A stretch of DNA of 64,000 bases from Hippopus hippopus (taxonomy: Eukaryota; Mollusca; Bivalvia; Cardiida; Cardiidae). The notes beneath the pieces are model-generated. The model was not told the DNA's origin. It was given only the letters and a program-made list of their open reading frames with translations, and ran no database searches. The first letter of the stretch is position 1. Each line of letters opens with the position of its first letter. The stretch lies in NCBI GenBank assembly GCA_946811185.2, contig OX328108.1:9134412-9198411 (forward strand), read 5' to 3'. Position numbers and translations under genes: made by a program. Of this stretch, positions 21,655-54,660 are shown piece by piece.

Positions 21655-23345
21655 ATGCAAAAATTGATCAAGTCACGCCCAGTCCATGCTCTCAGATTTT
21701 TCCCCTGCAAAACACACCCTGGAAAGACCCTACGTTCTTGCTCCAGATCAACGTTACTGCTCATGTCAATTGAACGTACCCGCTTCAGGTAAAAACATGG
21801 CCGCGTCCATAAGATTTTGCAAGCTAAGCACAAAAACATAATATTTTGACTTGTTAATGAATAGATATGCAGTTGAAGGTTGTCACACAGAATGTCTGGG
21901 ATGTCAGTGCACGTTAATCTGTAGTTCTTTTGGTGGTTAATCGTTTGTTAAAGACGTTTAATCCGACAAACTACGATTTCTGAAAAATCAATACTTGGAG
22001 TCTCCAAAAACCTTTGTAAAACATATACACTCGAAATTCTGAAGTGTGCACCGTGTTAGATGACCTATATAATGATTATTCCTTACAACTATAAACCGAA
22101 AAAAATTACATTGCAAATATATAGCAATATTTTGCCATTATTGCATTACAACGTAACATGCTCCTAAATTCAATACGACGATCTAGCTCCTGAGTTGAAA
22201 TACGGTTGGCGTAAGTCTTCGTGTTACGGTAAACAACTTTGTCATTTTGTTCAAGATTCTATATTAATTATCGTGGTCACAATCATAGGTTCGTCGTCCT
22301 TGATAATAGCAATAATTATCATATGAACGGCCAACTATGTATTCTAAATCAGCTGAACATCTATAGACATCGGTTTATTTATTTAGTTAGAGGCTAAATA
22401 GTAAATTCTACAGGAATATAATACACCCCAAAAGAACAAGTACAGTGTTCAACACTGCACATGGCCTAGACAAATCTCTAAAGCCCCCGTCACACCAAAC
22501 TAGTTCTTAGAACGTCTTATCCCGTCCTGACATAATCGGAAAACGGGTTACGAACCGGGCTGAACGTGTAATTTTGGCCTGATAATACCTGAAGCCCCTG
22601 CCTGACCAAACCTGCTCCTAGAAAGTCTTACCCCTGTCAACAAAATCGAAAAACGGGCTGCGGTCGGGATAGGACGTGTAATTCTTGTCGGTAAAATGCA
22701 AACGCACCGCCAGTTGATGCCCGACTGCACCGCGTCTCTAATAGGATATAGTACGGCAGTTCCGTTTGTAGTCCATCCATCTTGTTTTAGGTACGTTATT
22801 ACTCCATCTAATTACAATACGGGATTGAAGGCACAAAATTTTGAGCAGGCTAAAAGTTCTGGAGCATACTTCCCGTCCTAACCCTTACATTAAGTTCGTA
22901 AAAAGATCGTAAAAGGTTGCTAATACGTCCACTTCGTCCAAAACCAGTCTAAGTCCGTTTGGCAAACATTTTCGGAACGGAGTGAGAACAACTTTGGTGT
23001 GACGGAGGTATAAGATTACATTGTCATCCTTATTTGATGTTGTGATAAGTGAACATATTTTACACAGCCTATTGTACAACCTGTATGTTTTAACCGTTTC
23101 CCAAATATTTCCTACTTTAAATAAGCTAATGTAGAATACTAAGCAAAACAATGGACTTTTTTTTCCTTTTCTCACATTGTTACAATCCAATGAGATGTCT
23201 TTCAGTTTAGTCACATTTTAAACTGTTTTCTGCAACTTGGTCCCTGTCGATATAGATCAGTTCAAATGTGTAGTTTGATAAATACTTGAACGGCACTATG
23301 TACAATACTACAACACGTTGAACCTTTTTTTTTCTATCAGACATA
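21655..23345 (+). repeat. foldback repeat FB, copy 1 (right arm)
   Basis: Starts within the hairpin region (TCTTGCTCCAGATCAACGTT, CAATTGAACGTACCCGC, CCATAAGATTTTGCAAG) and continues through GAATGTCTGGGATGTCAGTG, GACCTATATAATGATTATTC and ATTACATTGTCATCCTTATT to ACACGTTGAACC and a T-run. Collinear with 26815-27915. It is interrupted by the MITE at 22482-23010. Confidence 0.8.
22482..23010. mobile_element. MITE with TAA target duplication
   Basis: Ends AGCCCCCGTCACACCAAACT and (complement of) TACCTCCGTCACACCAAAGT, flanked by TAA at 22479-22481 and 23011-23013. The sister repeat at about 27565-27580 reads ATCTCTAAGATTACATTG without insertion, so the empty site is seen directly. A 3-bp TWA duplication is characteristic of PIF/Harbinger elements (established); assignment is therefore probable. 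Confidence 0.75.
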
Positions 23346-24676: not shown

Positions 24677-24929
24677 GAAACAAAAATGTATAGGTTAGCC
24701 AGAGATAAAGCTCCGAGTAACAAATAAAAGAACAGTGTTGGCCTTTCGAAAGAAACCTAGTTCGCGTTGCTCTAGCTGTAAAGTAATCCGATGATAATTT
24801 GCATAAACAATTCATTTACAATAAGTGCAAAATTAAAAAACAAAAACAAAAAAAAAAAACATGTATTTGTTTTACTATTATATTTTTAGTCACTAATTCT
24901 ATTCTGATAGTATCAATTTTATTACATTT

Positions 24930-25230
24930 TATAGGTGTGAAGCTGAAAAGGCATATGGTTGGTTGTTCGTTGATGATCATTAATGATTTACATTAATGAA
25001 GAGGAGCTTTGTGATGACGATATCGATGATGATAGTTATAATAGTTATGGATCTTGTGCATGATAGTTATAATAGTTATGAATCTTGTGTATGATACTTA
25101 CTTTCATCAAGCTCTTCATGTATATAATGACATTCATTTCAAAAGCATCAAAAATCAGGACAAGAAAACTGACTGACAGAAAGACCGAAAAACGGACAGG
25201 GAGACAATTATACATACTAATCAAACTAGA
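24930..25230 (+). repeat. module shared with 28780-29040
   Basis: Shares GTGAAGCTGAAAAGGCATAT-type start, ATAGTTATAATAGTTATGAA, TTTCATCAAGCTCTTCATGT and GACAGAAAGACCG with 28780-29040. It is the left shoulder of the FB repeat module. Confidence 0.65.
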
Positions 25231-25329
25231 ACTTGTTTTTCTACAAAAAATACAGGTGTCTCCCCCCTTTTTGGTGTCAGAAGGATTGACATGTGACCAA
25301 GGAAAGTTCAAACTGAAATAATGGTCATG

Positions 25330-26260
25330 TTTCTCTAACAGTTTCCGAGTTATAGAGTGGACACAAAGTTGTAAACGTAAAATTTGTAAGGAAAATAATC
25401 AAAGGGAAATAACTCGAAAAAAATTATACAAGCCAGAGTTATGGTTCTTGTGCATGACACTTCATCCGATGGTGCTTTACAAATGTGTGAAGTTTTATCA
25501 AAATATCTGGAAAAGTTTTAGAGTTATAGAGCAGACATGATTTGTGATGGAAAATAATGAAAGGAAAATAACTCGAAAACTATGCAAGCCGGAGTTATGG
25601 TTCTTGTTCAAGACACTTTCTCTGATGGCGCTTTACAAATGTCTGAAGTTTTATCAAAATATCTGACAAGGTTTTCAAGTTATAGAGCGGACACGATTTG
25701 TGACGGAAAATAATCAAAGGGAAATAACTCGGAAAATATGAAAGCTGGAGTTATGGTTCTTGTGCATGACACTTTGTCTGATAGAGCTTTACAAATATGT
25801 GAAGTTTTATCAAAATATCTCAAAAAGTTTTCGAGTTATAGGGCACACACAATTTGTGACAGAAAATAATTAAAGAGAAATAACTCAAAAAATATGCAAG
25901 CCAGGGTTATGGTTCTTGTGCATGACACTTTGTCTGATGGAGCTTTATAAATGTGTGAAGTTTTATCAAAATATCTGAAAAGGTTTTCGAGTTACAGAGC
26001 GGACAGGGTTTGTGACGGAAAATAATAGAAGGGAAATAACTGGAAAAATATGCAAGCCCAAGGTTATGGTTCTTGTGCATGACACTTTGTCTGATGGAGC
26101 TTTAGAAATGTGTTAATTATTATCAAAACATCTCAAACAGTTTTGGAGTTATAGAGCGGACACGATTTGTGACGGACAGACGGACGGACAGACGAACGGA
26201 CGGACGGACGCACAGGGAAAAACAATATGTCTCCCAACCCTGAAGGGCGGGGGGGGGGAC
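25330..26260 (+). repeat. 157-bp minisatellite, about five units
   Basis: The block GAGTTATAGAGCGGACAC recurs near 25347, 25521, 25678, 25833, 25989 and 26146. Units include GGGAAATAACTCG, ATGCAAGCC, GGTTATGGTTCTTGTGCATG and ACACTTTGTCTGATGG. The array closes with a GGACAGACGGACGGACAG tract and CCCTGAAGGGCGGGGGG. The matching position in the next FB module (after 29040) lacks the array. Confidence 0.85.
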
Positions 26261-26269
26261 ATGAAAAAG

Positions 26270-28307
26270 ACAAATTAATTGATTAAACTCGTATACAATC
26301 GCTTATAATATCGTAATGCTGTTTCAACTTAGGAGTAAGATTGTTTTACTCAGTTTTGGAGCATGGAGCGTTGCCTATAAAAAATGACAGAAAGATGCTC
26401 AATAATGAAAATCGCATATTTTTTTGTATAGAACTGTGGTGAATAAAACATATGTGAATCACTTGGAAGAACACAAACTTCAGAATATCGTGTTTGTATG
26501 TTTAACAAAGCTCTTTGCTGACTTCCGCGTGTTGATTTTCCAGAAATCATAGTCGCTGACGGAAGTTTGTTGGATCAAACGTCTTCAACAACCAACCAAC
26601 CACCAAAAGAACAATACAGAAATATGCAATGACATCCCAGACATTCCGTGCGTCATCATCTATTACATATCTAATCATCTGATTGTCAAAAAAAGTACAT
26701 TTTTGTGCTTACCTAGCAAAATTCTTGGGCGCGGCCATGTTTTTACCTTGAGCGGGTACGTTCAATTGACAGGAGCAGGAACATTGATCTGCAGCAAGAG
26801 CATAAGGTCTCTCCAGGGTGCACGTTCTTGTTCCAGATCAACGTTGCTGCTCCTGTCAATTGAACGTACCCGCTCCAGGTAAAAACATAGCTGCGCCCAT
26901 AAGATTTTGCAAGGTAAGCACAAAATCATATTTTTTACATGTTAATAAATGGATATGCATTTGAAGGTTGTCGCACGGAATGTCTGGGATGTCAGTGCAC
27001 GTTAATCTGTAGTTCTTTTGGTGGTTAATAGTTTGTTGAAGACGTTTAATCCGGCAAACTTCCGTTGGCGACTACGATTTCTGGAAAATCAATACTTGGA
27101 GTCTCCAAAAATCTTTATAAAACATATACACTCGATATTCTGAAATGTGTGCCGCGTCAGTTGACCTATATAATGATTATTTCTCCCAACTATAAACCGG
27201 AAAAAAATTAAATTGCAATTATGAAGCAGTATTTTGCCATTTTTGCATTACAACGTAACATGCCCCTAAATTCAATATGACGATCCAGCTCCTGGGTTAA
27301 TACACGGTAAGTCTTCGTGTTAAAGTAAACAATTTTGTCATTTTGGTCAAGATTCTATTTTATTATCGTGGTCACAGTCACAGGTTCGCCATCGTTCATA
27401 ATAGCAATAATTATCATTATGAATGACCAACCATATATTCCAAATTAGTTGAACATCTACAGACATCGGTTAAGGCATTAGATTGAGGCTAAATAGTAAA
27501 TTGTACAGAAATACAATACACCCCAAAAGAACAGGTGCAGTGTTCCACACTGTGGCCTAGTCACATCTCTAAGATTACATTGTCATCCTTATTTGGTGTT
27601 GTGGTTGGTGAACATATTTTACACAGCCTACTGTAAAACCTGTATGTTTTAACCCTTTATCAAATATTTCCTAATTTAAATGAACTGATGTAGAATACTA
27701 AACAAAGCATTTGGGCTTTTTTTTTTTTCTCTTTTCTTTTCTCACACTGTATTCTATCAATGAGATAAGTATCTTTCAGTTTAGTCACATTTCAAGCTAT
27801 TTCTGCCACTTGATTCCTGTCGATATAGATCGATAGATCGGTTCAAATGTGTTGTTTAATGAATATTTAAATGGCAGTACAATCCTACAACACGTTGAAC
27901 CTTTTTTTTTTTTTTTTATTAGTAGGCCTGACTTTATTGAGCATGTATTCCGGCGATCTCGGGTTCTCTGTTTCTCTCCCCAGTTTTATTAAGCTGGAAA
28001 AATCAGATACTCATCGTCAAAAACAATGGAGAGAGAGAGATAGTGGAGCGGATTTGTCTGATAGGCCTTTGTGTCTTCTCAATTTGTTTCAGAAAGTAAC
28101 GATCCTAAGTTGTTTGTAACAATTTTATATACATTGTTGGTGAGTTTTTTTTTTTTTTTTTTTTAATGAAAGTGGTCAATGCTGAATACATATTTCATTC
28201 AAATATTAAATTCAAATTTTATCTGTTCAAAATAACAAATACATGATTTATAAGTGAGCGTTTTAAACGTACAAAGTATTAACCCTTTGGGTCTCAAAAA
28301 GAAAAAC

Positions 28308-28342
<35 letters not shown>

Positions 28343-28780
28343 CACACACAAAAGTCGCCTGCAACATTATTTCTTTTAGTATGAAAATATGAAAATACTT
28401 TTTAATAATCTGCCGTAGATAATCACATTAATTCGTTCTTTTTTCCCTTATCTATGCAAAGTAACACTACAGGCAAATATTGAAATGTCATGATCAGGCA
28501 CCGCCAGCTTCGGTAGCGGTTGATTCGGGACTGCATTATTTGTCTATGTCGTTTTCTGGTGCCAAAAGATTTAAGAATTTACCGGATCTGTTTTCGTGCA
28601 AAATATCAAAAACTATGCATCTATATAGCGTATTTCACACAAAAAATGGCTGGTTAATTTGAAACAAATTCGTCATCCGTCATTCGTAAGCTACATTAAG
28701 GTTTAAATAGGGTCTACTGTTTTGCAAAGGTGTAAAAAGATCTTTACATATCAAAATCGTAATATTAGATGTAACTACAT
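26270..28780. repeat. foldback repeat FB, copy 2
   Basis: Large imperfect palindrome centred near 26820. The left arm (about 26270-26815) carries CAGAAATCATAGTCGCTGAC, GACATCCCAGACATTCCGTG and GGGCGCGGCCATGTTTTTAC; the right arm carries their complements at about 26880-27130. The right arm continues to about 28780 and is repeated, inverted, at 34590-37380. Noncoding. Confidence 0.8.
28306..28351. repeat. (CA)n microsatellite
   Basis: ACACAC tract with two interruptions. Confidence 0.95.
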
Positions 28781-29497
28781 GCTTTTAGGTGTGCAGCTGA
28801 CAAGGCTTGTGGTTGGTTGCTCGTTGATATCATTATTATTAATTTACATTAAGGAAGAGAAGTCATGTAACGGCGATATCAAAGATAATAGTTATAATAG
28901 TTATGAATCTTGTGCATGATACTTTCATCAAGCTCTTCATGTATATAATGACATTTCATTTCAAAAGCACAAAAAAAAAATCAGGACGAGAAACCTGGCT
29001 GACAGAAAGACCGAAAGACGGACAGGCAGACAGTTATACATACTGATAAAAAACAAATTATATTTATTAAAATCGCAGACAATCGCTTATAATATCGTAC
29101 GCTGTTTCAGCTCAGGAGCTGGATCCTTTCATTGAGTTTTGGAGCATGAGCGTTGCCTATATTATTTGAGAGAAAGTTGCTCTATAATGAACATCGCATA
29201 TATTTTTGTTTAGAACTGTTGAATAAAGCATATATGAATCACTTGGTAGAGCACAAATTTCGGAATATCGTGTATGTATGTTTAACAAAATTTTTTGCTG
29301 ATTTCTTCGTGTTGATTATTCAGAAATCATAGTCGCTGACGAAAGTTTGTTGGATTAAACGTCTTCAACAACCAACCAACCACCAAAAGAACAATACAGA
29401 AATATGCACTGACACCCCAGACATTCCGTGCGACATCCGTCTACTGCATATCTATTCATCTGATTGATAAAGAAGCATGTTTTCAGGCTTACCTAGC
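28780..29497 (+). repeat. foldback repeat FB, copy 3 left arm
   Basis: Direct relative of 24930-25230 plus 26270-26720, ending TTTCAGGCTTACCTAGC. The matching sequence resumes at 34363 (AAATTCTAGGGCGCGG); the gap is the direct-repeat element. Confidence 0.75.
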
Positions 29498-30156
29498 TAA
29501 GGCAGCAGAACACAGTTTCGGTGTAAAATGTTGTAGGTACTTGGGACGTCACACCAAACTTTTCAGATTAGCGTCAAAATAATCAACCTGAAATTATAAA
29601 AAGCACTGAAATGCAACAGCACAATCCTATTTCTTTAGATTTTATCAATAAATCATGTTCAACTTGTGAAATAGTAAAATTACTGATCAATACAGGCAAA
29701 GTGGGATGGTCGGAAAAAAACTGACAAAATATGCCATTTTAGCCTATATTCCAAAATTCACAAAATGCAAACCCAGGAAGCTAGCCTGAAAATGCCAAGC
29801 TAAATTGAAACTCAAACCAACACATAATCTGGGGATAAAGTCCAAAATAACACGTTTCCATGCCGTTTTTTCGCAATCTTTCATGCCCTTACCCCACCCT
29901 TATATTTGCCGCTAAAAATGGCTGCTAGCTCCATGACCCCTCAGATTCGCATTTGGGGTCAAACCTATAGAACAAAGAAGGAAAGGTCATGACCTCCTCT
30001 TTCGTAGAAAAATTAAATGCTTCTTTTCCTTAATCTAACACAATTCATGGGTGTAATAACTCTTCTTCTTATCAAAATTGCACTGAAAACCTACCTTTCT
30101 CAATTATTTCTAATTTTGACCATGGCCAATTCGAAACAAACTGTTTACAGATGCCT
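29498..30156 (+). repeat. left terminal direct repeat
   Basis: 659 bp, begins TAAGGCAGCAGAACACAG and ends TTTACAGATGCCT. Differs from 33705-34362 at a GGCAAAGTGG/GGCAAGTGG indel and a TTTCTCAATT/TTTCTTAATT substitution. No open frame of note. Confidence 0.95.
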
Positions 30157-30973
30157 TAAGGCAAAAATGAAATTTTTCAAATATGCCAAAAAACACTTTA
30201 AACACTTTAAACAAGTACCTTGTCCTGTTACTGACTGATCTTAACCAGCAGAATGAGGCTCAGTTGCACAGAACTCATTTCACATGGATTCTTAACCCTT
30301 ATGCAAATAAGCATATTTTACCCCATTTTCCTGGCAATTTGAGCTCAAAGACAAGTCTAGGGAGAATCACTTGAACTTCACTTTTACAACCTCAAGCTAG
30401 TTTCTTTTCTCTTTCTGGACATAAATTTTACCTCAGGTACTTGTTCAGTTGCAAAAGCACTGGTTTTTCCCTGTCTTTGGTTCCGTTTCTGTTAAAATTG
30501 TCACTTTTTTTTTAACATACAATGCCAAATTGCCTGTCTGTTCCATAGAAAATTCTAATAATTAGAATTTTTAGAAACTGCTTCAACAAGTTTAAGATAT
30601 AAGCAACTTGCAAAACATATAAGAAACAAATAGAACACAAAAACTGAACCCTTTCCAAAAAATTTACCTTAGAAATTAAATTCTATCCAATTAAAGGGAG
30701 GTAATCCAAATGGTCAGAGTCAGAATTGAAGGCTGTTAATATAATGAGGCATCTGCTAATACTCCAATAGTGTGTAGAAGTAAATGTGTTTGTGAAATCT
30801 GATATTATTTCTGATAAATCCACATTTTTGAGAGCCTAATTGGTCAGTTTATCTCTTGTCCTATCAAGAAGACCAAGAAATATGCACAATCTCCCACTTT
30901 CTGAGTTGACTTTGTCAAGAAAGGAAGGTTTTTTTCCACAAGTTAGAGTGAAATCTCAGTGTTAAACAAGAAA
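30157..30973. other. element interior upstream of the transposase
   Basis: AT-rich, with no open frame of note. It starts TAAGGCAAAAATGAAATTT, weakly resembling the complement of the opposite interior end (TAAGGTAATTTTGAATTT). It presumably holds the transposase promoter; no motif was recognised. Confidence 0.4.
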
Positions 30974-32839
30974 ATGCCTAGAAATTACAGGAAATGTTGG
31001 ATTAGTTGCAACAAATCTACCAAAAAGAGAGCTACCCAGTTTAAAAAGGGTCATCGGGCAACTTGTAATGGAACGGTGAAAACTACATCAGATGTCATAC
31101 CGACGACACATGGCAGACCAATGGTACGCGTTTCCAGTCAGGAGGCTCAAGATCTTGAGTTAATGTCTTCTTCTTCTTCTTTTCTTCCTTTCACACTTAG
31201 ACCGCAGCATGACAAAGAACCAAATGAAAATGAAAATGTGGATTTAACAGAGAATGTGATTATGAATATGGGAAAACTAAGAGAGTTGATGAACCTTGTG
31301 CACGGGAATTCCTGCGAAAACCCTAGGGTTAATGTTAATATTGTTGACCGCACGGGCCTCTGTGTATCTGTTTACATGAAGTGCAGTGTGTGCCATTTCA
31401 GTCTACAGCCACTGCAGCTATCAGACACTGTGAAAAAGGCCTACGGACCACCGGCTGGTGAACTCAATGAATTGGCAGTATTGCCTGCAGTCAAGACAAA
31501 AATGGGCCTGGCAGACATTACCACAGTTCTGACATGTCTAAATATCAAAGCTCCTAGCAGAACAGTGCTTCAGAGAAAATTCAGCACATTGTGTGATAAG
31601 ATGGTTGACCTGAATGAGCAACAAATGGAAAAAAATCAAAAATATTTGCGACACGTGACTTCGCTGATACCGAATGAACCACGGGTCGATGCACAATACG
31701 ACGTGTCATACTCAAGCAGGCCTCAAGGTGGCAGCGAAAAGGCCCAACAGAGTTTTGCCGCAATTATAGAACATACGACCACCAGAAAATTACCAATTGC
31801 AGCAGCTGTGGCCAATAAACATTGCGGAATTAGAGGCTGTGACCACAGAGAGGCAAAGTGTAAGAAGACATATAGTTCCAATAAGTCAATTGCAGCGAGT
31901 GAGCGCTCACTTCTGCATGGTATGTTAAACAATGTGGAAAGAGCAGGACTTGTAACACTTCGTTCAATCACGACTGATGCCAGCGCACAGCTTGCTAAAG
32001 CGATGACAGATTATAATTCTAAAAGTGGTTCAAGACTTTCCCACTACAAATGTTTTGTGCACAGACTAAGGACACTCGAACGACATGTCAGAGCACTTCC
32101 TCTGTACAGCATTCCAAAAGCGTACAACAAAAAAGGGTATATTCAGAAGCTGGCCAGCTGTATAAGAACTCGCGTAAGAATGGAGCTGAAAAATGCACGA
32201 ACACTGAAAAAATATGACCAATCATTTATCGAAAGTGGCACGGCAGCAGTTCTTAACATTACGAATTGTTTATCAGGTGACCATCGACAGTGCCGACAGA
32301 AGTCATCAGTATGTAAAAGCCACCTTTCCCCATACAGTACAAGCATGCTGCCTTATGGAGTTCACTTAGAACTTAGTCAAAGAGATCTGAATTTAATCCA
32401 AAATGAAATCAACAGAATGTTTGATGAAGATGGCCTGTAGAGTATGGGCAAACTTTATAATACAAACATGTGTGAGAGCCTGCACTCCACAGTATATCGA
32501 CTTGCTCCGAAGTCCATTTGTTGGAGCCGGAATTTTCCAGCCCTTTGCCATTCGGCTGTGCATTCGACTTCGCTCGGACCAAGTCAGTCTACGATACAAT
32601 TGGCGCAAGCTGCTGGCATCAGTGTGCGGAGGAATTCTCAATTCTACAGGCAACTTAAACTTAAAGACCGTTGCAGGAGGTATGACTCTAAACGAAGATC
32701 TTCACCTGAGCACAAACAGAAGAGATACTTTTTGCGGAAAAAAAAATCAAATCAATCCCTATTTGGCGATTCCCTGTACAGTGTTGAAAATGCAGCCTCT
32801 ACATCAGCTCAAGATCATAACTATGGCCTCTCTTCATGA
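30974..32839 (+). pseudogene. Mutator-like transposase, one in-frame stop
   Basis: Frame of 622 codons from ATG 30974 (MPRNYRKCWI) to the stop at 32837-32839, interrupted only by TAG at 32438-32440 (codon 489). It resembles Mutator-like transposase-domain proteins common in marine invertebrate genomes: TGLCVSVYMKCSVCHF (about 127-142), GELNELAVLP, GLADITTVLTCLNI (178-191), VDAQYDVSYSSRPQGG (238-253, first acidic residue D243), SITTDASAQ (D335), HYKCFVHRLRTL (358-368) and, past the stop, NTNMCESLHS (probable catalytic Glu) and APKSICWSRNF. The N-terminus is basic; no zinc finger was recognised. The stop would remove the catalytic Glu, so the copy is inactive unless read through. The lack of other damage points to a young lesion. 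Confidence 0.8.
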
Positions 32840-32869
32840 TAAAAAAATTAACTATCTACATGATAGCCT

Positions 32870-33382
32870 TTAACCCCCCTTCCCCCCCCCCACAAACTTT
32901 GAACCCCCCCCCCCACACACAAACTTTGAACCATGAACTTTCATCAAAATACAACAATAACTAAACCAACCAGCAACATGGTTTGAAGCCAAATAACATT
33001 TACCAAAGATGCAGTTCTGGAAACCTCTGTGGCCAGTACATTCTCCATTACTGTGACAAATTTTACGTGCATTGTTAATGGATATGTTTTCATATGATAA
33101 GTGATCAACATTGATACATAATTTGTTGTGACACAAATGTGACACATGCTTGTCACTACAAAGCTGAATTGGACTTTTCTCGATAAAGTATGCAAGTCGA
33201 TGAACCAGCAGTTTCAACCTTTTACCATCAACCGAGACTCGGTATACACCATAGCCATATATATCGGTTGGGCCGGTCCAAACTACACATTCATCATGGG
33301 CCAGAGACTTGTCGGATAAAGCATTTCGGAACATGACGACTCTTTCCGGACACAATGGAGTCTTGAAGAATGCACTGGCCAT
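32870..33382 (-). CDS. His-Cys box (His-Me finger) endonuclease
   Basis: An open frame of 170 residues on the minus strand, from ATG at 33382. CVVWTGPTDIYGYGVYRV (about 33-50) and LLVHRLAYF lead into HVSHLCHNKLCINVDHLSYE, SINNARKICHSNGECTGH and then C. This matches the zinc-binding loop domain of His-Cys box homing endonucleases: first-site ligands C, C, C, H; second-site C, C, H, C; the catalytic His of SHLC and the Asn of SINN as in I-PpoI-type enzymes. All expected residues are present. The C-terminus runs into glycine-rich low complexity from a C-run (32879-32920). It is convergent with the transposase and inside the same direct repeats. Family members cut specific DNA sites; the role here is unknown. 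Confidence 0.7.
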   Translation of the reverse strand: MASAFFKTPLCPERVVMFRNALSDKSLAHDECVVWTGPTDIYGYGVYRVSVDGKRLKLLVHRLAYFIEKSPIQLCSDKHVSHLCHNKLCINVDHLSYENISINNARKICHSNGECTGHRGFQNCIFGKCYLASNHVAGWFSYCCILMKVHGSKFVCGGGGSKFVGGGKGG

Positions 33383-33704
33383 AATAGGTATGTGGGTTTG
33401 TTGCTGTAATATCAGAAATGGTCTATATTTACCAGAATTGCCTAAATCAAACTGCTTTCAAGGAAAACGTCGCCGGAAAAGTCCAAAAATAGCAAAATAA
33501 GGCGACATGACGTCGAGCGCCAAATTCGCCAAATTTGCCTTTTTCCGCATTTTGAGTTACCTCTCTTTTTTAAATCAATATCAGCCAAAATTTACAGTCT
33601 TAGAATCATCTTAAGTACTATTTCCAGATTAGAAATTGATAGAATTACTAGAATAAATGCAATCTGCGATCAAAATACAAACTTCATAAAATTCAAAATT
33701 ACCT
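33383..33704. other. element interior upstream of the endonuclease
   Basis: No open frame. Contains a CRE-like ATGACGTCG near 33507 and ends AAATTCAAAATTACCT. Probably holds the endonuclease promoter. Confidence 0.35.
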
Positions 33705-34362
33705 TAAGGCAGCAGAACACAGTTTCGGTGTAAAATGTTGTAGGTACTTGGGACGTCACACCAAACTTTTCAGATTAGCGTCAAAATAATCAACCTGAAA
33801 TTATAAAAAGCACTGAAATGCAACAGCACAATCCTATTTCTTTAGATTTTATCAATAAATCATGTTCAACTTGTGAAATAGTAAAATTACTGATCAATAC
33901 AGGCAAGTGGGATGGTCGGAAAAAAACTGACAAAATATGCCATTTTAGCCTATATTCCAAAATTCACAAAATGCAAACCCAGGAAGCTAGCCTGAAAATG
34001 CCAAGCTAAATTGAAACTCAAACCAACACATAATCTGGGGATAAAGTCCAAAATAACACGTTTCCATGCCGTTTTTTCGCAATCTTTCATGCCCTTACCC
34101 CACCCTTATATTTGCCGCTAAAAATGGCTGCTAGCTCCATGACCCCTCAGATTCGCATTTGGGGTCAAACCTATAGAACAAAGAAGGAAAGGTCATGACC
34201 TCCTCTTTCGTAGAAAAATTAAATGCTTCTTTTCCTTAATCTAACACAATTCATGGGTGTAATAACTCTTCTTCTTATCAAAATTGCACTGAAAACCTAC
34301 CTTTCTTAATTATTTCTAATTTTGACCATGGCCAATTCGAAACAAACTGTTTACAGATGCCT
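33705..34362 (+). repeat. right terminal direct repeat
   Basis: 658 bp, nearly identical to 29498-30156. Followed directly by FB repeat sequence (AAATTCTAGGGCGCGG). Confidence 0.95.
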
Positions 34363-34590
34363 AAATTCTAGGGCGCGGCCATATTTTTACCTTGAGCGGT
34401 TACGTTCAAGTGACAAGAGCAGTAAGGTTGACCTGGAACAAGAACGTAAGGTCTCTCCAGGGTGCACCCTGGAGAGACCTTACGTTCTTGCTCCAGATCA
34501 ATGTTACTGCTCCTGTCAATTGAACGTAACCCCGCCCCCCCGATAAAAAGATGGCTGCGCCTAGAATTTTTCTAGATAAGCACCAAAACA
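34363..34590. repeat. FB central hairpin
   Basis: Long hairpin with arms of about 95 bp around GGGTGCACCC (34460-34469). The left arm has AAGAACGTAAGGTCTCTCCA; the right has its complement. Equivalent hairpin or half-hairpins: 21660-21820, 26715-26910 and 37265-37380. Confidence 0.85.
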
Positions 34591-35426
34591 TACACATTTG
34601 ACAATCGTAACAGACTATTCTTCGTTAATGTAAATGAATAATAATTAACATCAACGAACAACCAACCATATGCCTTGTCAGCTGCACACCTATAAGCATC
34701 TACTTATGTCTAAACTATGATTTAAATATGTATAGATTTTTATTTTTTCACTCGTCACACCTTTGCAAAACAGTAGACCCTAATTAGACCTTAAAGTAGC
34801 TTACGAATGACAGATTTGTTTCAAATTAACAAGCAATTTTTTTTTATTGTGAAATATACTATATAGATGCATAGTTTGTGATTTTTTGCACAAAAACAGA
34901 TCAGGTAAATTCTTAAATCTTTTGGCACCAGAAAACGACGTAGGCAAAGAATGCAGTCCCAGATCAGCCGCTACTAAAGCTGGCGGTGCCTGATCATGAG
35001 ATCTTACTATTTGCGTGTAGTGTTACTATAGATAAGGGGTGAAAAAAGGAATTAATGTGATTATCTACGGCAGGTTCTTTAAAGGTATTTTCATATTTTC
35101 ATACTGAAAGAAATCATGTCGCAGACGACTTTCTTTTATTGTACACCTAAAGGGTTTATACTCGTATATTTTAAATGCTCACTTACAAGTCATGTATGTT
35201 TTATTTTCAGATAAAATGTGAAAACGATATGGAAAAGGAAGAAGAAAAATCTTTGCCTTAATAATTCAAAAAGGCGACCAAAATCAAGTTGCAGAAAACA
35301 GTTTAAAATGTAATTAAACAGAAAGATACTTATCTCAATGGATAAATACAATGTGAGAAAAGGGAAAAAAATGCCCAATGTTTTGCTTAGTATTCTACAT
35401 CAGTTTATTTGAATTAGGAAATATAT

Positions 35427-36376: not shown

Positions 36377-36860
36377 TGTAACGTTATGAGTGAAAACTCC
36401 GTTACCACAAACTCTATGGCTGACTGAGGAGACGTGTTTTTTGAGAATCATATTTTCTTAGATTTTGGCTATTGATGCCTTATTTGCCTGTCTCGCCATA
36501 TGAATATTGATATTGGTAGTGGGAGTGTTTTGGTTTCCTATAAATGTGGTGTAAGATGCGCGATCGAGAGAGAGATGAGAAGACAGAGAGTGAATATCTC
36601 TGTATAGAGAAGGTTAAGATCAGGACAGAATGTTGTGGTACCATCTAAATGAAGTGATAAGATCTGGAATGAGAGAACAATTGGTTTTAGTATCTATGAA
36701 GAGTTTTACCTACGTAACTGATTCATGTTTGAATATCATGTTTGAGTAGTTTACTTGTGTCGTAATCAATAAACACGTAGAATAGCAGATTCGTGTTTAT
36801 GTTATATTTGATGAACTGAAATCCACTATACGATCGAGACATTAGACGCATAATGTTACA
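36377..36860. mobile_element. solo LTR, 484 bp
   Basis: Begins TGTAACGTTATGAG and ends CATAATGTTACA, flanked by ATTG on both sides (36373-36376, 36861-36864). The uninterrupted relative near 27325-27340 carries a single ATTG. No open frame. An AATAAA lies at about 36769. Confidence 0.65.
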
Positions 36861-37429
36861 ATTGTTTACTGTAACACGAAGACTTACGCTTCCCGTGTTT
36901 CAACTCAGGAGCTGGATCGTCGTACTGAACAGAGGAGCATCTTACGTTGTAATGCAAATGGCAAAATATCGCTTTATAATTGCAATGTAGGCCTATTTTT
37001 TTTTTATAATTGTGGGGAACAATCATTACATAGGTCATCTGAGATGGTACACACTTCAGAATACCGAGTATATATGTTTTACAAAGGTTTTTGGAGACTC
37101 CAAGTATTGATTTTCCAGAAATCGTAGTTTGTCGGATTAAACGTCTTCAACAAACGATTAACCACCAAAAAAACTACAGATTAACGTGCACTGACATCCC
37201 AGACATTCCGTGCGACAACCTTCAACCGAATATCTATTTACTTGCATGTCAAAGAATTATGATTTTGTGTATACCTTGCAAAATCTTATGGGCGCTGCCA
37301 TGTTTTTACCTGGAGAGTGTACGTTCAATTGACATGAGCAGTAACGTTGATCTGGAGCAAGAACGTAAGGTTTCCCCAGGGAGTAAATGTGCGAAATATT
37401 GCAATACGTGTGAGGCTCTGCAACCAACT

Positions 37430-44800: not shown

Positions 44801-47800
44801 TCTCTTGCAACGAAAAAAAGTAGCAAAGTGAGGCATCATTTTTTTTACCATCTTGTCTTGGTCTAAAAACAACTGGGGTACCTTTGACTAAACTGCGTAC
44901 GCACGAAATTTTCGTACGCAGTTTTTTGCAAGCAAGCATCAAGTCTGAAAACAAATTTCACTGAAATGCATGTAACTTTAAGATTTGGCTATATATTTGC
45001 GTTACTTTACGCCAGGGCATGTCTTTGGTAAAGCAGGGATTGTACATGTGTATATTCAATTATAAACAAAAATGAGTATATCTACGCAGATTAGTGAAAG
45101 GTACCCCTGGTCTTAAACTGGGAGGGTATTCAAAAACATGTAGTCTTTATGCCAAAAGGGTTTTAAAATAACCCTTTACCACACAATCCCGAGTTTTAAC
45201 GAGCCTAAGAAGGAAATCCTTTGAAAAAATGTGTAAATGTTTCCTACCCTGTCAATGACACAAGTCATCTTTTGATCTACATATGATTTTTCGTTTTCAA
45301 CGGCTTCAATTTGGTCGAATCTAAAACTTTGTCATGTAGCAAAGATGTAATAACAAGATAGACTACGATTCAAAGTGAGCCAGTCTTCAAATATTACTAT
45401 CCTTTTGAAGTGAAGCCCGAAGACACAGTCAAGTCACTACAAGTGACAGTGGGGTGTGTTTCTTTTATGCTTTTCAGAAGTTTATAAAAATCTAAAAGTG
45501 AATTATATCCTTAAAATTCACCAGTGACTTTTATACAGTGAATTTGATAACTTTTATTTTTGACATACCACGGATATTTATAGAACATCGTTGAATTTTT
45601 AGTGGGTGAACGTCACGTTTTATTACGTAGTCAACATCACTATTGACGCCATTATTACAGCTAGTCCATCATTCGGCATACCTCGGGTGATGGTAGCCAT
45701 CATGTAGGTACGGAATCGGCCGAGTTGTGACGAGTGCTAGTCCATATCCGACTACATTGAACAGATCTATTTCGCTTGAAAAACGCACACATATTTCTCG
45801 ATGAGCAAAAAGTAGACGTAAAAAGAAAAGTTAGAGTGAAGAGCAAAAAAGTAGGATAATTTTTTATGTATGATCGAAATTTCTTTCATCTCTTCAAAAG
45901 CAAAGGCCATATTTTCACTCGTAGCTACCGCCACTCGTGAAAATATAGCCCTCGCATTTCACTCGACGAAAGAAATTTCAACCATACACCGATCACAGAC
46001 AGTTATCCTCTTTATATTATATCTATCATAGTACAGACGTATGGAATCACGTGCAAACAGAAGGAAAATGTGAGGCCCTTCCTGAGATATCGAAAGGGGG
46101 GACTGACATGCAAGAAGAGTAACTGATGAGGGTTTGATCGATGAATATCATAGTTTTTAACGCCTTTTCCAACATTATTTCAGTTGTACCAAACCTAGTG
46201 CTATCAACTACTGTTCAAGGACTACGTAGACCTGTTCACGTGTAGTCCTTGAACAGTAGTTGATAGATTTCTTGAATGGTGTTTTACGCCGCTTTCAACA
46301 TTATTTCAGTCATATGACGGAGACAGCTCACATACTCATGCATTTTCTGGGTTTTACCAGCAAGAGGCTAGAAATCTGAGGTTTTTTGCCCAAGGACACT
46401 CCCACGAAAGACCCAGTGTATCTAGTGCGGCTCGAACCCAGGGCCTCCAGGTTACTAGTCCCACACTTTACCACTGAGCCACGCAGGGCCCCTACCAGTA
46501 GTTGAGTCAAGGCATTATTGCACGCCACTGGCTGCTTTCCCACATAAACAGCGATCGAAGCAATGTTCAACATTGAGAAAAGAATAGATCCTGACAAATG
46601 ACTTTTACAAATCCCCGTAAAGATGTTGGCGCAGCTGCGATTCGAATTAACGGCCGCAGGATCAACAGCTATGTACATAATTCACTGAGCTCACCTAGCT
46701 AGGTAATGAACCAATCGCTCATTAAATTGTAAGCAAGCATAAAAAAAAAAATCAAGCCGATAGTTAAATACCAAGTATTGCTATTTCAAAGTTATTTTTT
46801 GCAGGGAAACTACATGTTTCTCCTTATCGGACAGTGTACACCTAAGATCAGACTGCACGTTCTGTGCAGTCTGATCTTGATCTACATTGTCCGCAAAAGG
46901 TCCTCGGGTCGCGCGTAGCAGCCTAAGGGTTAAAATAGAGGAAGGACGGAGAAGGGATGGACTCAGTGATTTTTTTAGAGCCAAATGTATCGGGTTTATC
47001 AGTTACGACAGTTGAAAACACAAACCCTCAAACTCAGAAGGATATTTATCATATAGCTTTGACTAAACAGGATCAGATTGAGCGTTGTGCGCAGTCTGAT
47101 CCTGATCTATGTCGTTCGCAAACGCTCCTATTTTCGTTTATAGCGTCAATAAATTTATACAGGTCTAGCCCTTAGGTTGTTACGCGCGACTCACTGAACT
47201 TTTACGGACAGTGTAGATCAGGATCAGACTGCACAGAACGTGCAGTCTGATCTTGGACCTACACTCTCCGTTTCAAAGGGATTTACCCCGCAACCTCCAC
47301 CTTCCCCCCTCCCCCCTCCCCCAAAAAAAAAAAAATAGATAAAAAAAATATACTGAACCAAAAAAGAAACTTCCCCTGTGTTTAAGTGCAGATATACACA
47401 AATATGAAAATCAGGATTAAACTAGATTTATATGCATTGAAAGAGTATTTTATTGCGACTTTGTGTGAAAAAAATTATTGCTGAGGGTTTATCCAAAAGT
47501 AGTGAAATGGTAGTTAAAATGCGGAAGGGGTCGCTCACCAAAATCACAAATTAATACCGGGTATGACCACCTTCAGCATGAAGGACTGCCTGGCATCGTT
47601 GGCGCATAGAACGGATAAGTGTATTGATTTCGGCGCGTGGAATGTTGTTCCATTCCTGAATTAAGGCTTGTCTTAGCTGAATGACGTTTGACGTTGGAAT
47701 AGGGCGACGTCTAACACGCTGGTCCAAATTATCCCAAAGGTGTTCAATGGGATTCAGATCAGGGCTTTTGGCAGGCCAGTCATTAATAAATGCAATGTTA

Positions 47801-49244
47801 TTCGCCCTGAGGAAATTCACATTGTCCCTAGCTGTATGGCTTGTGGCATTATCACGTTGAAAAAGAGTGATATTGGCATTATTTTGAAACAGTGGGATAA
47901 CGTGCCTCGCAAGAATTTCATCTCGGTAGCGTTGGGCATTTAAATTCCCTTCGATAACGACGAGATTAGTGCGAAAGCCATGTACAATGCCCGCCCAGAC
48001 CGAGACAGAACCGCCACCCCCAAAACGATCTCGTTCAAGTACGCAACAGTCGGCACAACGTTCATTTCTCCTACGGTATACTCGAACCCTGCCATCACCT
48101 CGATGAATGGAAAACCTCGACTCGTCAGAGAAAAGAACGCTATTCCATTGTTGTCTAAGCCAGTGTTGGTGTGTACGTGCCCAATTAACACGATTTACGC
48201 GGTGACGTCGCGTCAAAACGCAACCAACGTATGGACTACGTGCACGTGGCCCACCCTCGCGCAAGCGATTGCGCACAGTTTTGGCAGATATACGCTTGTT
48301 ATGTGTACCAGGGGTGTTAGCAGCAGTGGCGGTGGCAGTTTGGAAGCGATTGCGCAGGTGGGTGTTCCGAATATAGCGGTCTTGGCAGTGCGTCGTGACG
48401 CGAGGACGTCCACTACGTGGTCGATCTTCCGTACGCCTTGATGCTTGAAAACGTTGCCTAAGGTGTCGAATAGCACGAGTAGAACATCCAATATTCATAG
48501 CAACAGCATTCATCGTCATACCAGCATTAAGCATGCCAATGGCACGTTCGCGTAAATTTTGCGGAATTCTAGGCATATCAAAAATAAAGAAAACTAAAAA
48601 GAATTTAATTTTTTTTCAACGTCTTTTTCTTATTGACATGAAAGTCTATAAAATTAGACTGAAAGGTTTCAAAAAATATATACGAATTATACTGGTCCGT
48701 GCATGCACGTGAAAATCGCTTTCAGCCGGTTTCTTCTGCAAAATGCTTTCAATCGAGTTAAAATTTGTTTTATCGGACACATAATCGTTCGCCCGAATAT
48801 ATGTAGGTCATCTGACATTTTGATTTTTTTTAATAACATTGCATTTGCACTTAAACACAGGGGAAGTTTCTTTTTTGGTTCAGTATATAAGTTTAAAATA
48901 GCAACGTTCTGGTTTTTAATATCGGCTTGAGAATTTCATTTTAACTCATTTAGCAGGTCAAGAGTTAAAGCATAATTTCCTTATCGAGTGAAAATACCAG
49001 TGTTACATATTTGTGAAAACTTGTCATTTTTACAGGGGTGTTCAGTCTTTTTGGATGTGGAGAGGTCTCTAAAAAGTACCCAGGACAAGAACAAGGCAAT
49101 AGTTTCCGGTTATGCTTTGCGGCCGGCTGTCTAGCCTGTGCTGAAGTCCTGTTTTTTATTATATTCAACTGGAGCCAAGGTTGGCAAGCAAATCGAAATG
49201 CTGCGGAGCGGCAACCGTTTAAAAACGCAGGAAGACCTATGTAA
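41842..49244 (+). CDS. claudin-like four-helix membrane protein, gene 2
   Basis: Exons: 41842(or earlier)-42049, 43705-43884 and 49036-49244; donors gtgagt and gtaagt, acceptors ttgcag and tacag; phase 1 at both junctions, exactly as in gene 1. Exon 1 encodes helix 1 (LLTVLALSIAILQITGV) and the loop with W-x5-C-x8-CC, sequon NAS and DCGGSL. Exon 2 encodes helix 2, a Cys-rich cytoplasmic turn (CIFCCRCCTCRCIC) and helix 3. Exon 3 has YPGQEQGNSFRLCFAAG, helix 4 and a short basic tail ending GRPM. No in-frame ATG exists after the TAG at 41839, so the start lies in an unseen upstream exon (cttcttag at 41841 is a possible acceptor) or has been lost. Intron 2 holds a Tc1 element. Probable membrane/junction protein. 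Confidence 0.65.
42060..42290 (+). repeat. decayed SINE family 1 (gene 2 intron 1)
   Basis: Tail GTAAGAACCTGTTTCACAAT, CCATGTGAAATAAATAC and a middle TTTCTAGGGAGCAAAATCGA match family 1 loosely; the head is degraded. Confidence 0.45.
42455..42530 (+). repeat. hairpin repeat family F3 fragment
   Basis: CGGACGGTGTAGATC, ACTTTGTGCAGTCTGATCTT, GACCTACCCTTTCC; first arm degraded. Confidence 0.45.
43080..43310 (-). repeat. tRNA-derived SINE, family 3 (gene 2 intron 1)
   Basis: On the minus strand: GGGGTCCTGCGTGGCTCAGT (box A), GGGTTCGAACC (box B), AGTGTCTTTAAACAAGTCAC and a tail with AATAATTTTTAAAGCCGCGT. Relatives at 46267-46495 (minus) and 52496-52690 (plus). Confidence 0.75.
43430..43620 (+). 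repeat. foldback repeat family F1 copy
   Basis: TTTTGGAAAAGGAGAAAATG and ACCCACAATGCC; diverged. In intron 1 of gene 2. Confidence 0.45.
44343..44600 (+). repeat. dispersed repeat family F2 copy (gene 2 intron 2)
   Basis: GCAAAAGGGAGGTAATTGCA start, GTGGATCCATAACATCCATT, TTTGACATGCAGAAAATTTG, AAATGTATTAAGCCCCCTAA end. Confidence 0.6.
44752..44773. repeat. (TTG)n microsatellite
   Basis: Seven TTG-type units. Confidence 0.85.
44866..45115. mobile_element. MITE-like element with GGGGTACCTTT ends
   Basis: Left AACTGGGGTACCTTTGAC and right GTGAAAGGTACCCCTGGTC are inverted. Interior has an AAACTGCGTACG / CGTACGCAGTTT palindrome at 44890-44925. Target duplication not clear. Confidence 0.45.
45165..45340 (+). 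repeat. foldback repeat family F1 copy
   Basis: AACCCTTTACCACACAATCC, TTTCCTACCCTGTCAATGAC, CGGCTTCAATTTGGTCGAAT. Confidence 0.6.
45870..45985. repeat. GAAAATAT(A/G)GCC foldback
   Basis: CGAAATTTCTTTCAT...GGCCATATTTTCACTCG and CGTGAAAATATAGCC...GAAAGAAATTTCA are inverted around a short centre (GTAGCTACCGCC). A related hairpin is at 60600-60720. Confidence 0.6.
46201..46266. repeat. perfect 25-bp stem hairpin
   Basis: 46201-46225 and 46242-46266 are perfect complements (CTATCAACTACTG... / ...CAGTAGTTGATAG) around a 16-base loop. It sits between two fragments ending CAACATTATTTCAG that belong to SINE family 3. Confidence 0.85.
46267..46495 (-). repeat. tRNA-derived SINE, family 3 (gene 2 intron 2)
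   Basis: Minus strand: GGGGCCCTGCGTGGCTCAGT, GCCCTGGGTTCGAGCCGC (box B), AGTGTCCTTGGGCAAAAAAC, AGCCTCTTGCTGGTAAAACC and tail GACTGAAATAATGTTGAAAG then CGGCGTAAAACACC. Confidence 0.8.
46750..46935 (-). repeat. hairpin repeat family F3 copy
   Basis: Stem CAAGATCAGACTGCAC / GTGCAGTCTGATCTTG at 46845-46880, flanked by TCGGACAGTGTACACC and ATCTACATTGTCCGC, then GCAGCCTAAGGGTTAA. Confidence 0.75.
47060..47115 (+). repeat. hairpin repeat family F3 fragment
   Basis: AGGATCAGATTGAGCG / GCGCAGTCTGATCCTGATC. Confidence 0.5.
47165..47275 (+). repeat. hairpin repeat family F3 copy
   Basis: CCCTTAGGTTGTTACGCGCG, GGACAGTGTAGATCAGGATC, stem AGACTGCAC...GTGCAGTCT, CCTACACTCTCCG. Confidence 0.7.
47348..47389 (+). 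repeat. Tc1 terminal inverted repeat, left
   Basis: Begins TATACTGAACCAAAAAAG and ends TTTAAGTGCA; perfect complement of 48846-48887. Confidence 0.92.
47551..48576 (-). CDS. Tc1 family transposase (DD35E)
   Basis: 341 residues, full length for the family (about 340), no frameshift or stop. The N-terminal paired-like DNA-binding region has a first helix-turn-helix (about 7-45), a GRPR hook (SGRPR, 55-59) and a second helix-turn-helix (about 95-108). The catalytic domain has D151 (FSDESRF), a glycine-rich stretch 185-190 (FGGGGSVSVW), D242 (RDNATSH) and E278 (SPDLNPIEHLW). The D242-E278 gap is 35 residues, not the 34 of classical Tc1. It would cut at the TIRs and paste into TA sites in the nucleus. 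Start: the only ATG near the upstream end. With intact ends, this copy may be autonomous. Confidence 0.93.
   Translation of the reverse strand: MPRIPQNLRERAIGMLNAGMTMNAVAMNIGCSTRAIRHLRQRFQASRRTEDRPRSGRPRVTTHCQDRYIRNTHLRNRFQTATATAANTPGTHNKRISAKTVRNRLREGGPRARSPYVGCVLTRRHRVNRVNWARTHQHWLRQQWNSVLFSDESRFSIHRGDGRVRVYRRRNERCADCCVLERDRFGGGGSVSVWAGIVHGFRTNLVVIEGNLNAQRYRDEILARHVIPLFQNNANITLFQRDNATSHTARDNVNFLRANNIAFINDWPAKSPDLNPIEHLWDNLDQRVRRRPIPTSNVIQLRQALIQEWNNIPRAEINTLIRSMRQRCQAVLHAEGGHTRY
48846..48887 (-). repeat. Tc1 terminal inverted repeat, right
   Basis: Perfect complement of 47348-47389. Confidence 0.92.
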
Positions 49245-52495: not shown

Positions 52496-52690
52496 AGGGG
52501 TCCTCCATGGCAAAGTCTTGGATTCGTAACTTCGAGGCCCCGGGTTCACTGGACGCACTTGGTTTTTCGTTGGAGTGCGCTTGGGCAAGACACTTTAGAG
52601 CTCCAACTTACTACTGGTTAAAACCAGAACAAAAATGAGTATGCGAGGTATAGCCGTGATATGACTGAAATAATGCACCATTCAATCCGT
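52496..52690 (+). repeat. tRNA-derived SINE, family 3
   Basis: AAGGGGTCCTCCATGGCAAA head, CCCCGGGTTCACTGG (box B), CGCTTGGGCAAGACACTTTA, then GGTTAAAACCAGAACAAAAA and tail GATATGACTGAAATAATG. Its 3' half is included in the tandem duplication. Confidence 0.7.
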
Positions 52691-54660
52691 CAACCGCGCA
52701 ATTTCAAACAAATAAGTAAAATAATTTGTAGTTTATTGTATAAATAAGAAAACAAAATGATCGCATTATATGATTTTAGTCAACTAGTTTAATACACATG
52801 AAAATACATAAACACGAATGCGATATTTTATTTATCACATGCAGGGATAGACTGCCATTAGTCCGTTACATAGAACATCTTCATAAAAAAAAGAAAACTC
52901 ATAAAATGAAACTGCAAAACAAATACACTAATATAATGTCCCAAAAGTCGGTTTAACGTGTATTTTTAGAGGAAGGGCAAATAAGTAGAGGTTATTACAT
53001 TCTGTTACTAATAATAGTAACATTTTCCACTGAAAATGGTGTAATATCAGTGTCATGCGAGGGCAAACATGGCGGGGTAACGGGCTGATATCTGATATCC
53101 TGCCCGTTGACAAGATATTTGTTCTAAATCTATAGCAACAGAACACTCGCTCGTAAACTTACATTCTCAAAACATCCATTTTGAAAAAAAAATGGCTGAA
53201 TCGGTCCGTCAATCGCTAGCGGACAAATCTTCAGAACTACAGTCAATGTTGAATCGTTAAACCAACAAAGACCCGATAAATAGAGAATAGATTGATGTTG
53301 TCTTGGATTGGGAAACTTGTCAGGCAATGCGTAGTGTCTATAGGCTAGTACTTCTACGAATTTTATCCATTGAGCCGGGTGAACCGAGCTTGATTAAGTT
53401 TCATAATTCGAAGCACCAACCATCTATTCTATTTATCCTGTTTCTCAGTTTTGATCTGTATCACACAAAATTGAATATTTAGATCGGAGAAACAATAATG
53501 GCAACACCTGTTCAACAATGAACAAACATGAAGAACTGTTTATTTAAAACGTCCTATACTGCACATATATGCAGCTCTACGACAGTGATGGTGAATGACG
53601 TCATGAACGTGACGTTTACCCGCGGAAAAAAGTTGTACTTGTTAAAACCAGAACAAAAATGAGTATGCGAGGTATAGCCGTGATATGACTGAAATAATGC
53701 ACCATTCAATCCGTCAACCGCGCAATTTCAAACAAATAAGTAAAATAATTTGTAGTTTATTGTATAAATAAGAAAACAAAATGATCGCATTATATGATTT
53801 TAGTCAACTAGTTTAATACACATGAAAATACATAAACACGAATGCGATATTCTATTTATCACATGCAGGGATAGACTGCCATTAGTCCGTTAAATAGAAC
53901 ATCTTCATAAAAAAAAGAAAACTCATAAAATGAAACTGCAAAACAAATACACTAATATAATGTCCCAAAAGTCGGTTTAACGTGTATTTTTAGAGGAAGG
54001 GCAAATAAGTAGAGGTTATTACATTCTGTTACTAATAATAGTAACATTTTCCACTGAAAATGGTGTAATATCAGTGTCATGCGAGGGCAAACATGGCGGG
54101 GTAACGGGCTGATATCTGATATCCTGCCCGTTGACAAGATATTTGTTCTAAATCTATAGCAACAAACACTCGCTCGTAAACTTACATTCTCAAAACATCC
54201 ATTTTGAAAAAAAAAATGGCTGAATCGGTCCGTCAATCGCTAGCGGACAAATCTTCAGAACTACAGTCAATGTTGAATCGTTAAACCAACAAAGACCCGA
54301 TAAATAGAGAATAGATTGATGTTGTCTTGGATTGGGAAACTTGTCAGGCAATGCGTAGTGTCTATAGGCTAGTACTTCTACGAATTTTATCCATTGAGCC
54401 GGGTGAACCGAGCTTGATTAAGTTTCATAATTCGAAGCACCAACCATCTATTCTATTTATCCTGTTTCTCAGTTTTGATCTGTATCACACAAAATTGAAT
54501 ATTTAGATCGGAGAAACAATAATGGCAACACCTGTTTAACAATGAACAAACATGAAGAACTGTTTATTTAAAACGTCCTATACTGCACATATATGCAGCT
54601 CTACGACAGTGATGGTGAATGACGTCATGAACGTGACGTTTACCCGCGGAAAAAAGTTGT
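52617..54660 (+). repeat. 1.02-kb tandem duplication
   Basis: Units 52617-53636 and 53641-54660, offset 1024 bp, separated by ACTT. Only about five differences were noticed (for example GATATTTTATT/GATATTCTATT, GTTACATAG/GTTAAATAG, CCTGTTCAAC/CCTGTTTAAC and two single-base indels). Each unit contains SINE family 3 tail, a 22-codon frame starting ATGGCTGAATCGGTC (53192), and a CRE-like TGACGTCA followed by TTTACCCGCGG at its end. No convincing gene. Confidence 0.92.

What the first reader, a model, noticed from the sequence alone, without database searches (positions are those of the whole stretch)
29498..34364. Direct-repeat-bounded element pairing a Mutator-like transposase with a His-Cys box endonuclease
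Seen: two 658/659-bp direct repeats, with two differences noticed, enclose exactly two reading frames: a Mutator-like transposase (+) and a His-Cys box endonuclease (-), tail-to-tail. Cut-and-paste elements normally end in inverted, not long direct, repeats, and I do not know of a described element that couples these two enzyme families. Inference: this may be an undescribed class in which the endonuclease has a role in target choice, excision or copy number. The host repeat it disrupts is present uninterrupted nearby, so borders are defined.
Basis: partly seen in the sequence, partly recalled or inferred. Interest (0 to 1): 0.87.

Follow-up and report, generated by a model that had tools for sequence, protein, structure and literature searches.

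The report
KolobokP transposon with paired direct repeats
This is one copy of KolobokP, a group of animal jumping genes described in 2022 that pairs a transposase with a DNA-cutting homing enzyme between two long same-direction repeats; the copy's transposase is broken, and the kind is not new.

Summary
Two nearly identical direct repeats (655 and 654 bp without the flanking TAA; one substitution and one indel) enclose a transposase gene (+) and an I-PpoI-like His-Cys box endonuclease gene (-), tail to tail. That the class is undescribed does not hold: Kojima and Bao (2022, PMC9587614) described this architecture as KolobokP, 228 families in 7 animal phyla, especially rich in bivalves. The KolobokP features I could test are met: LTDR length (about 660 bp class), short inverted ends in each LTDR (14 of 18 positions), GG...CC termini, a 3-bp TAA duplication (related empty site nearby), DDE/CxxH/zinc-finger signatures, nuclease on the opposite strand. 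'Mutator-like' is only the Pfam name. This copy's transposase has an in-frame stop before its last catalytic residue; the nuclease frame is open. One detail I did not find in the paper's main text: both LTDR/internal junctions read CCTTAAGG, containing the core of the I-PpoI target; the outer ends do not. This suggests where the nuclease cuts, but rests on one copy, is partly expected from Kolobok end rules, and a published family with TATA there speaks against a universal rule. No other copies were reached: the genome search did not complete (nine attempts).

The parts
29498..29500 (.). left TAA target-site duplication
   Evidence: TAA at both outer ends; empty relative has AAA at this place
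29501..30155 (+). left long terminal direct repeat (LTDR), 655 bp, starts GGCAGC, ends GATGCC, ends inverted at 14 of 18 positions
30156..30159 (.). TTAA at the left LTDR/internal junction, inside the palindrome CCTTAAGG (30154-30161)
30160..33703 (+). internal region (INT), 3544 bp
30974..32839 (+). Kolobok-type DDE transposase frame, 621 codons plus stop, including one in-frame TAG at 32438-32440 that lies before the last catalytic Glu (CESLH from 32471)
32870..33382 (-). I-PpoI-like His-Cys box (His-Me finger) endonuclease frame, open, 170 aa; the last ~46 aa are not conserved and run into a C-rich tandem repeat, so the true C-terminus is uncertain
33704..33707 (.). TTAA at the right internal/LTDR junction, inside CCTTAAGG (33702-33709)
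33708..34361 (+). right LTDR, 654 bp, differs from the left one by one indel and one substitution
34362..34364 (.). right TAA target-site duplication
26265..26930 (+). related host repeat without insertion (empty-site relative)

Best explanation
It is a monomeric LTDR-INT-LTDR copy of a KolobokP DNA transposon of the ~660-bp LTDR class. Shown here: the anatomy, TAA at both outer ends with an empty relative, two conserved enzyme frames, and a transposase frame interrupted by an in-frame stop. Inferred from Kojima and Bao 2022 and from family knowledge: the DDE transposase acts at the short inverted ends of the LTDRs and moves the whole unit, or one LTDR alone. The I-PpoI-like nuclease (I-PpoI works as a homodimer and makes a staggered cut) cuts the element or its circular form, and repair against the other LTDR duplicates LTDR-INT units (multimers) or restores the paired structure. 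Since its own transposase frame stops before the third catalytic residue, this copy could now move only with transposase supplied from elsewhere, unless the stop is read through.
For: LTDR pair with 2 differences and inverted ends. TAA flanks and empty relative. Transposase PF20700 E 1.7e-36. In the alignment of the window frame with 21 homologues, D243, D335, C360, H363, C284/C289/C296 and C432/H437/C440/C447 are invariant and H291 is at least 90% conserved. The last catalytic Glu (CESLH in the window; always ES in the homologues that reach it, with neighbours that vary) is seen by eye in 19 of the 21 homologues; P0033 ends before it and P0043 diverges there. The window stop at codon 489 precedes this Glu, residue 501. 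Nuclease: PF05551 at E up to 0.001 in 31 of 31 members of the nuclease alignment, window included. The profile of that alignment finds 5 distinct PDB sequences at E up to 0.01, all I-PpoI, best E 1.1e-7; the window protein alone reaches I-PpoI at E 0.0013. Aligned to I-PpoI, the window protein keeps S97, H98, C100, C105, H110, E114, N119 and C125 as S81, H82, C84, C89, H94, E98, N103 and C109 (the conservation of S97, H98, H110, E114 and N119 in the group is from the paper). The published definition matches point by point.
Against: No second copy of the family was seen; within the window only this copy is found (the element matches nothing else but its own repeats; 58 tblastn segments from 57 proteins, 0 outside 30900-33500). 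The empty relative differs by one base from the inferred target. No cleavage or transposition has been measured for any KolobokP in the text that I read.
Confidence: 0.96

Rival explanations
1. Undescribed class of transposon.
For: Direct rather than inverted long ends and a homing-type nuclease are unusual among DNA transposons.
Against: The same combination with the same repeat length class, strand arrangement and end rules is published as KolobokP.
Confidence: 0.01
2. Chance composite: two copies of a ~655-bp miniature element that inserted independently on both sides of an unrelated element carrying the two genes.
For: Each LTDR has its own inverted ends and flanking TAA/TTAA, so it looks like a complete small transposon; the paper reports solo LTDRs and their excision.
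Against: Same orientation, only 2 differences, exact TTAA junctions on both inner sides, and the same structure recurs in published families.
Confidence: 0.02
3. Mutator (MuDR) superfamily element with acquired direct repeats.
For: Pfam name of PF20700; MuDR shares the C/DxxH signature with Kolobok (paper background).
Against: 3-bp TAA duplication and TTAA inner junctions rather than the 8-10 bp of MuDR (that number is recalled); GG...CC ends; a CCHC cluster after the first D, which the paper gives for KolobokP and a few other Kolobok lineages.
Confidence: 0.02

Closest known systems
KolobokP (Kojima and Bao 2022, Mobile DNA 13:24, PMC9587614)
   Same: LTDR-INT-LTDR; LTDR about 660 bp with short inverted ends; RR...YY termini; short target duplication; DDE transposase on the direct strand and downstream His-Me finger nuclease on the complementary strand; total 4,861 bp against 4,022-4,748 bp for the published autonomous Pacific oyster families
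   Different: Slightly longer than that oyster range; inner junctions read TTAA within CCTTAAGG, whereas the one family for which the main text gives them (KolobokP-1_MeMe) has TATA; this copy's transposase frame carries an in-frame stop
I-PpoI and other His-Cys box homing endonucleases of nuclear rDNA group I introns
   Same: The catalytic and zinc residues covered by the alignment; the core CTTAAGG of the I-PpoI target (CTCTCTTAAGGTAGC) is present at both inner junctions
   Different: Encoded in a DNA transposon, not in an intron; its target is not known
Other Kolobok lineages (Kol0, KolobokD, E, H)
   Same: Transposase superfamily, RR...YY ends, TTAA
   Different: No long terminal direct repeats; other accessory proteins (from the paper)
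Bacterial composite transposons
   Same: Mobile unit flanked by two copies of a smaller mobile unit (comparison made in the paper)
   Different: Here both enzymes lie in the internal part, and no gene was found in the flanking units

Membership tests
KolobokP | Two long terminal direct repeats, about 450 or about 660 bp | tested here: met
   655 and 654 bp, 2 differences
KolobokP | Each LTDR has its own short inverted ends (up to 18 bp) | tested here: met
   14 of 18 positions; 0 of 20,000 random pairs within the LTDR reached that (the length 18 was taken after seeing the match)
KolobokP | Termini 5'-RR...YY-3' | tested here: met
   GG...CC on both LTDRs
KolobokP | Short target duplication (3-4 or 4-5 bp) | tested here: met
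   TAA at both ends; empty relative has AAA, one base different
KolobokP | DDE transposase with C/DxxH and both zinc fingers | tested here: met
   D243, D335, CFVH 360-363, C284/C289/H291/C296, C432/H437/C440/C447; the last Glu lies behind the in-frame stop
KolobokP | I-PpoI-like nuclease downstream on the complementary strand | tested here: met
   32870-33382 minus
KolobokP | Transposase falls in the KolobokP clade of the Kolobok tree | not tested
KolobokP | Family members as monomers, solo LTDRs and multimers | not testable with these tools
   Genome search did not complete
MuDR/Mutator | 8-10 bp duplication (recalled) | tested here: not met
   TAA, 3 bp
His-Cys box homing endonuclease | Catalytic His/Asn and zinc Cys/His residues of I-PpoI | tested here: met
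His-Cys box homing endonuclease | Cuts a defined semi-palindromic site | not testable with these tools
   Needs purified enzyme; CCTTAAGG at the inner junctions is only a candidate

The most novel reading that the evidence does not exclude
The homing site of the KolobokP nuclease is the LTDR/INT junction itself. Kolobok end rules (GG...CC termini around a TTAA) build CC-TTAA-GG at both inner junctions here, and would on any LTDR-INT circle. That contains the core CTTAAGG of the I-PpoI rDNA target, whose cleavage leaves TTAA 3' overhangs. The outer borders (GCTAAGG and GCCTAAAT here) and the empty relative lack the core, so the enzyme would cut between LTDR and INT and spare host borders. This would explain why this nuclease family was captured by a TTAA-targeting transposon, and how multimers and paired ends are regenerated.
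Probability: 0.17. Interest if true: 0.55.

Novelty: new member of a known kind. Interest (0 to 1): 0.22.

Why it matters
As a copy of a described element it adds little beyond one more well-bounded example with an empty relative site. The useful lead is that both inner junctions carry CCTTAAGG, which contains the I-PpoI core and gives a concrete, easily tested candidate for the unknown cutting site of the KolobokP nuclease; the paper leaves that site open, placing it inside the LTDR or at LTDR ends abutted on a circle.

Tried and rejected
Undescribed class: rejected after the literature search (the word 'KolobokP' is in 1 paper of the held library). Mutator membership: rejected on duplication length and ends.

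Internal region as a transposon in its own right: its first and last 20 bases match inversely at 13 of 20. This looked strong against random positions (0.0004) but is weak once composition is controlled and the leading GG is held fixed (0.014 by shuffling, 0.038 against AT-rich 18-mers). I do not claim it.

I-PpoI-like site: scored over all 127,972 15-mers of both strands, 5 reach 11 of 15 and two of these five are the right junction read on each strand; 58 reach 10 or more; the left junction reaches 9 on + and 10 on -. CCTTAAGG occurs 2 times in the window, both at the junctions; 30 Markov-1 simulations gave a mean of 0.73, and 3 of the 30 gave 2. So the count alone is not remarkable; the position is. 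The GG/CC and TTAA parts are not independent of Kolobok end rules.

Relatives in other collections: viral contigs gave 0 relatives in 3 scans. Genome contigs gave 0 for the transposase and 1 for the nuclease (L001), whose frames, judged by eye only, look like an unrelated phage-type HNH gene on a bacterial contig. Protein homologues: 30 nucleases (95 candidates scored) and 26 transposases (only the 8000 candidates sharing most words were scored, so this is a part). I aligned 30 of 30 nucleases and 21 of 26 transposases; the 5 left out (P0040, P0049, P0051, P0055, P0056) cover 51-72% of the query. Two contig lengths, 4227 and 3924, occur in both lists, which hints at shared contigs but does not show it. 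The transposase profile found 0 PDB sequences at E up to 1. Rfam and tRNA scans of the window gave 0 matches.

Full report
What is there. The window holds two direct repeats of 655 and 654 bp (29501-30155 and 33708-34361) that differ by one indel and one substitution. Between them, TTAA excluded, lie 3544 bp (30160-33703) with two genes, tail to tail and 30 bp apart: a transposase on + and a small endonuclease on -. Outside, both ends carry TAA. A related host repeat at 26265-26930 reads through the same place without the insert (CTAGC-AAA-ATTC), and a second relative, the other arm of the palindrome that flanks the insertion on the right (34548-34578, reverse strand), reads CTAG-AAAAATTC.

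The enzymes. The transposase frame 30974-32440 matches PF20700 (E 1.7e-36) and aligns with 21 database proteins. In that alignment D243, D335 and the C and H of the CxxH at 360-363 are invariant, as are the Cys of two zinc-type clusters. The final catalytic Glu (CESLH in the window) is seen by eye as ES in 19 of the 21 homologues; P0033 ends before it and P0043 diverges there. In the window the frame meets TAG at 32438-32440 and goes on in frame to 32839 with that Glu and the rest of the C-terminus. This copy's transposase frame is therefore cut off before its third catalytic residue. The endonuclease frame 32870-33382 is open, matches PF05551 (E 2.1e-11), reaches I-PpoI in the PDB on its own (E 0.0013), and its alignment profile finds 5 distinct PDB sequences at E up to 0.01, all I-PpoI (best 1.1e-7). 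The catalytic and zinc residues covered by that alignment are kept. PF05551 is found in 31 of 31 members of the nuclease alignment. The last ~46 residues of the window protein are not conserved and run into a C-rich tandem repeat at 32882-32932, so the true C-terminus is open; an intron there is possible but untested.

What it is. Literature searches led at once to Kojima and Bao 2022 (PMC9587614), whose main text I read (parts 1-5 of 6; outline and passages; the supplements not at all). [quoted passage not shown] They report 228 families in 7 animal phyla, and almost all bivalve genomes analysed have at least one. They also report solo LTDRs, multimers and LTDR excision, and they propose transposition plus nuclease-induced unequal crossover. 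The element here meets each structural point that I could test. Its name in Pfam, 'Mutator', is a label only.

How it probably works. Shown by sequence: boundaries, TAA at both ends, enzyme signatures and an interrupted transposase frame. Inferred: the transposase recognises the short inverted LTDR ends (14 of 18 positions). Because each LTDR has such ends at both sides, it can move the whole unit or one LTDR. The nuclease makes a staggered cut in the element, and repair against the other LTDR changes the copy number of LTDR-INT. These steps are the published model; I have no independent proof of them.

One added observation. Both inner junctions read CCTTAAGG: GATGCC-TTAA-GGCAAA on the left, ATTACC-TTAA-GGCAGC on the right. 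The I-PpoI target is CTCTCTTAAGGTAGC (passage of PMC6294500). The right junction matches it at 11 of 15, the left at 9 or 10 of 15 depending on strand. The outer borders lack the CTTAAGG core. The paper leaves the cutting site open, suggesting the inside of LTDRs or LTDR ends abutted on a circle. I did not find the junction idea in its main text. In the held library 'KolobokP' occurs in no other paper. 'Kolobok' with 'His-Me finger' occurs in 3, of which a 2025 bivalve paper cites KolobokP multimers as a possible source of long non-coding RNAs (passages) and the third was seen only as a listing; a broader search matched 43 papers, 20 of them seen as a listing. Against the idea: this is one copy; the match is partly forced by Kolobok end rules; 58 of 127,972 15-mers in the window score 10 or more; CCTTAAGG twice in 64 kb is not very rare (3 of 30 simulations); and the published KolobokP-1_MeMe has TATA, not TTAA, at both ends of its internal region.

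Not done. Hence no second copy, no family-wide junction table and no tree.

Verdict. Real, well bounded and correctly seen, but already described: a KolobokP copy. Interest is low, with one modest, testable lead on the nuclease target.

Noticed in passing
window 47554-48615 (-): Open 354-codon stop-to-stop frame of a Tc1/mariner-type transposase (PF13358 DDE_3 E 1.6e-12, PF01498 E 1.2e-11).
   Followed up: partly
window 52612-54660: Tandem duplication of about 1,025 bp at 99.4% identity, head to tail, origin not examined.
   Followed up: no
window 28351-28872 and 34606-35132; 26472-27151; 34363-34569: The host repeat around the insertion is built of large imperfect inverted repeats (83% between the outer arms) with several related pieces at 21714-22481, 24929-27572 and 36849-37384.
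   Followed up: partly
window 7607-9439 and 25382-26176: Two satellite-like tandem arrays, periods about 134-293 and 156 bp.
   Followed up: no
window 32870-33010 (-): In the nuclease alignment about 10 of 31 rows, counted by eye, have a Val and then unrelated residues shortly after the last conserved Cys, as if reading into an intron; possible spliced C-terminus.
   Followed up: no
protein hits: For 8 of 30 nuclease and 10 of 26 transposase hits the longest contig is 3.9-4.4 kb, near the size of one LTDR plus INT or one whole unit; two lengths (4227, 3924) are shared by the two lists.
   Followed up: no
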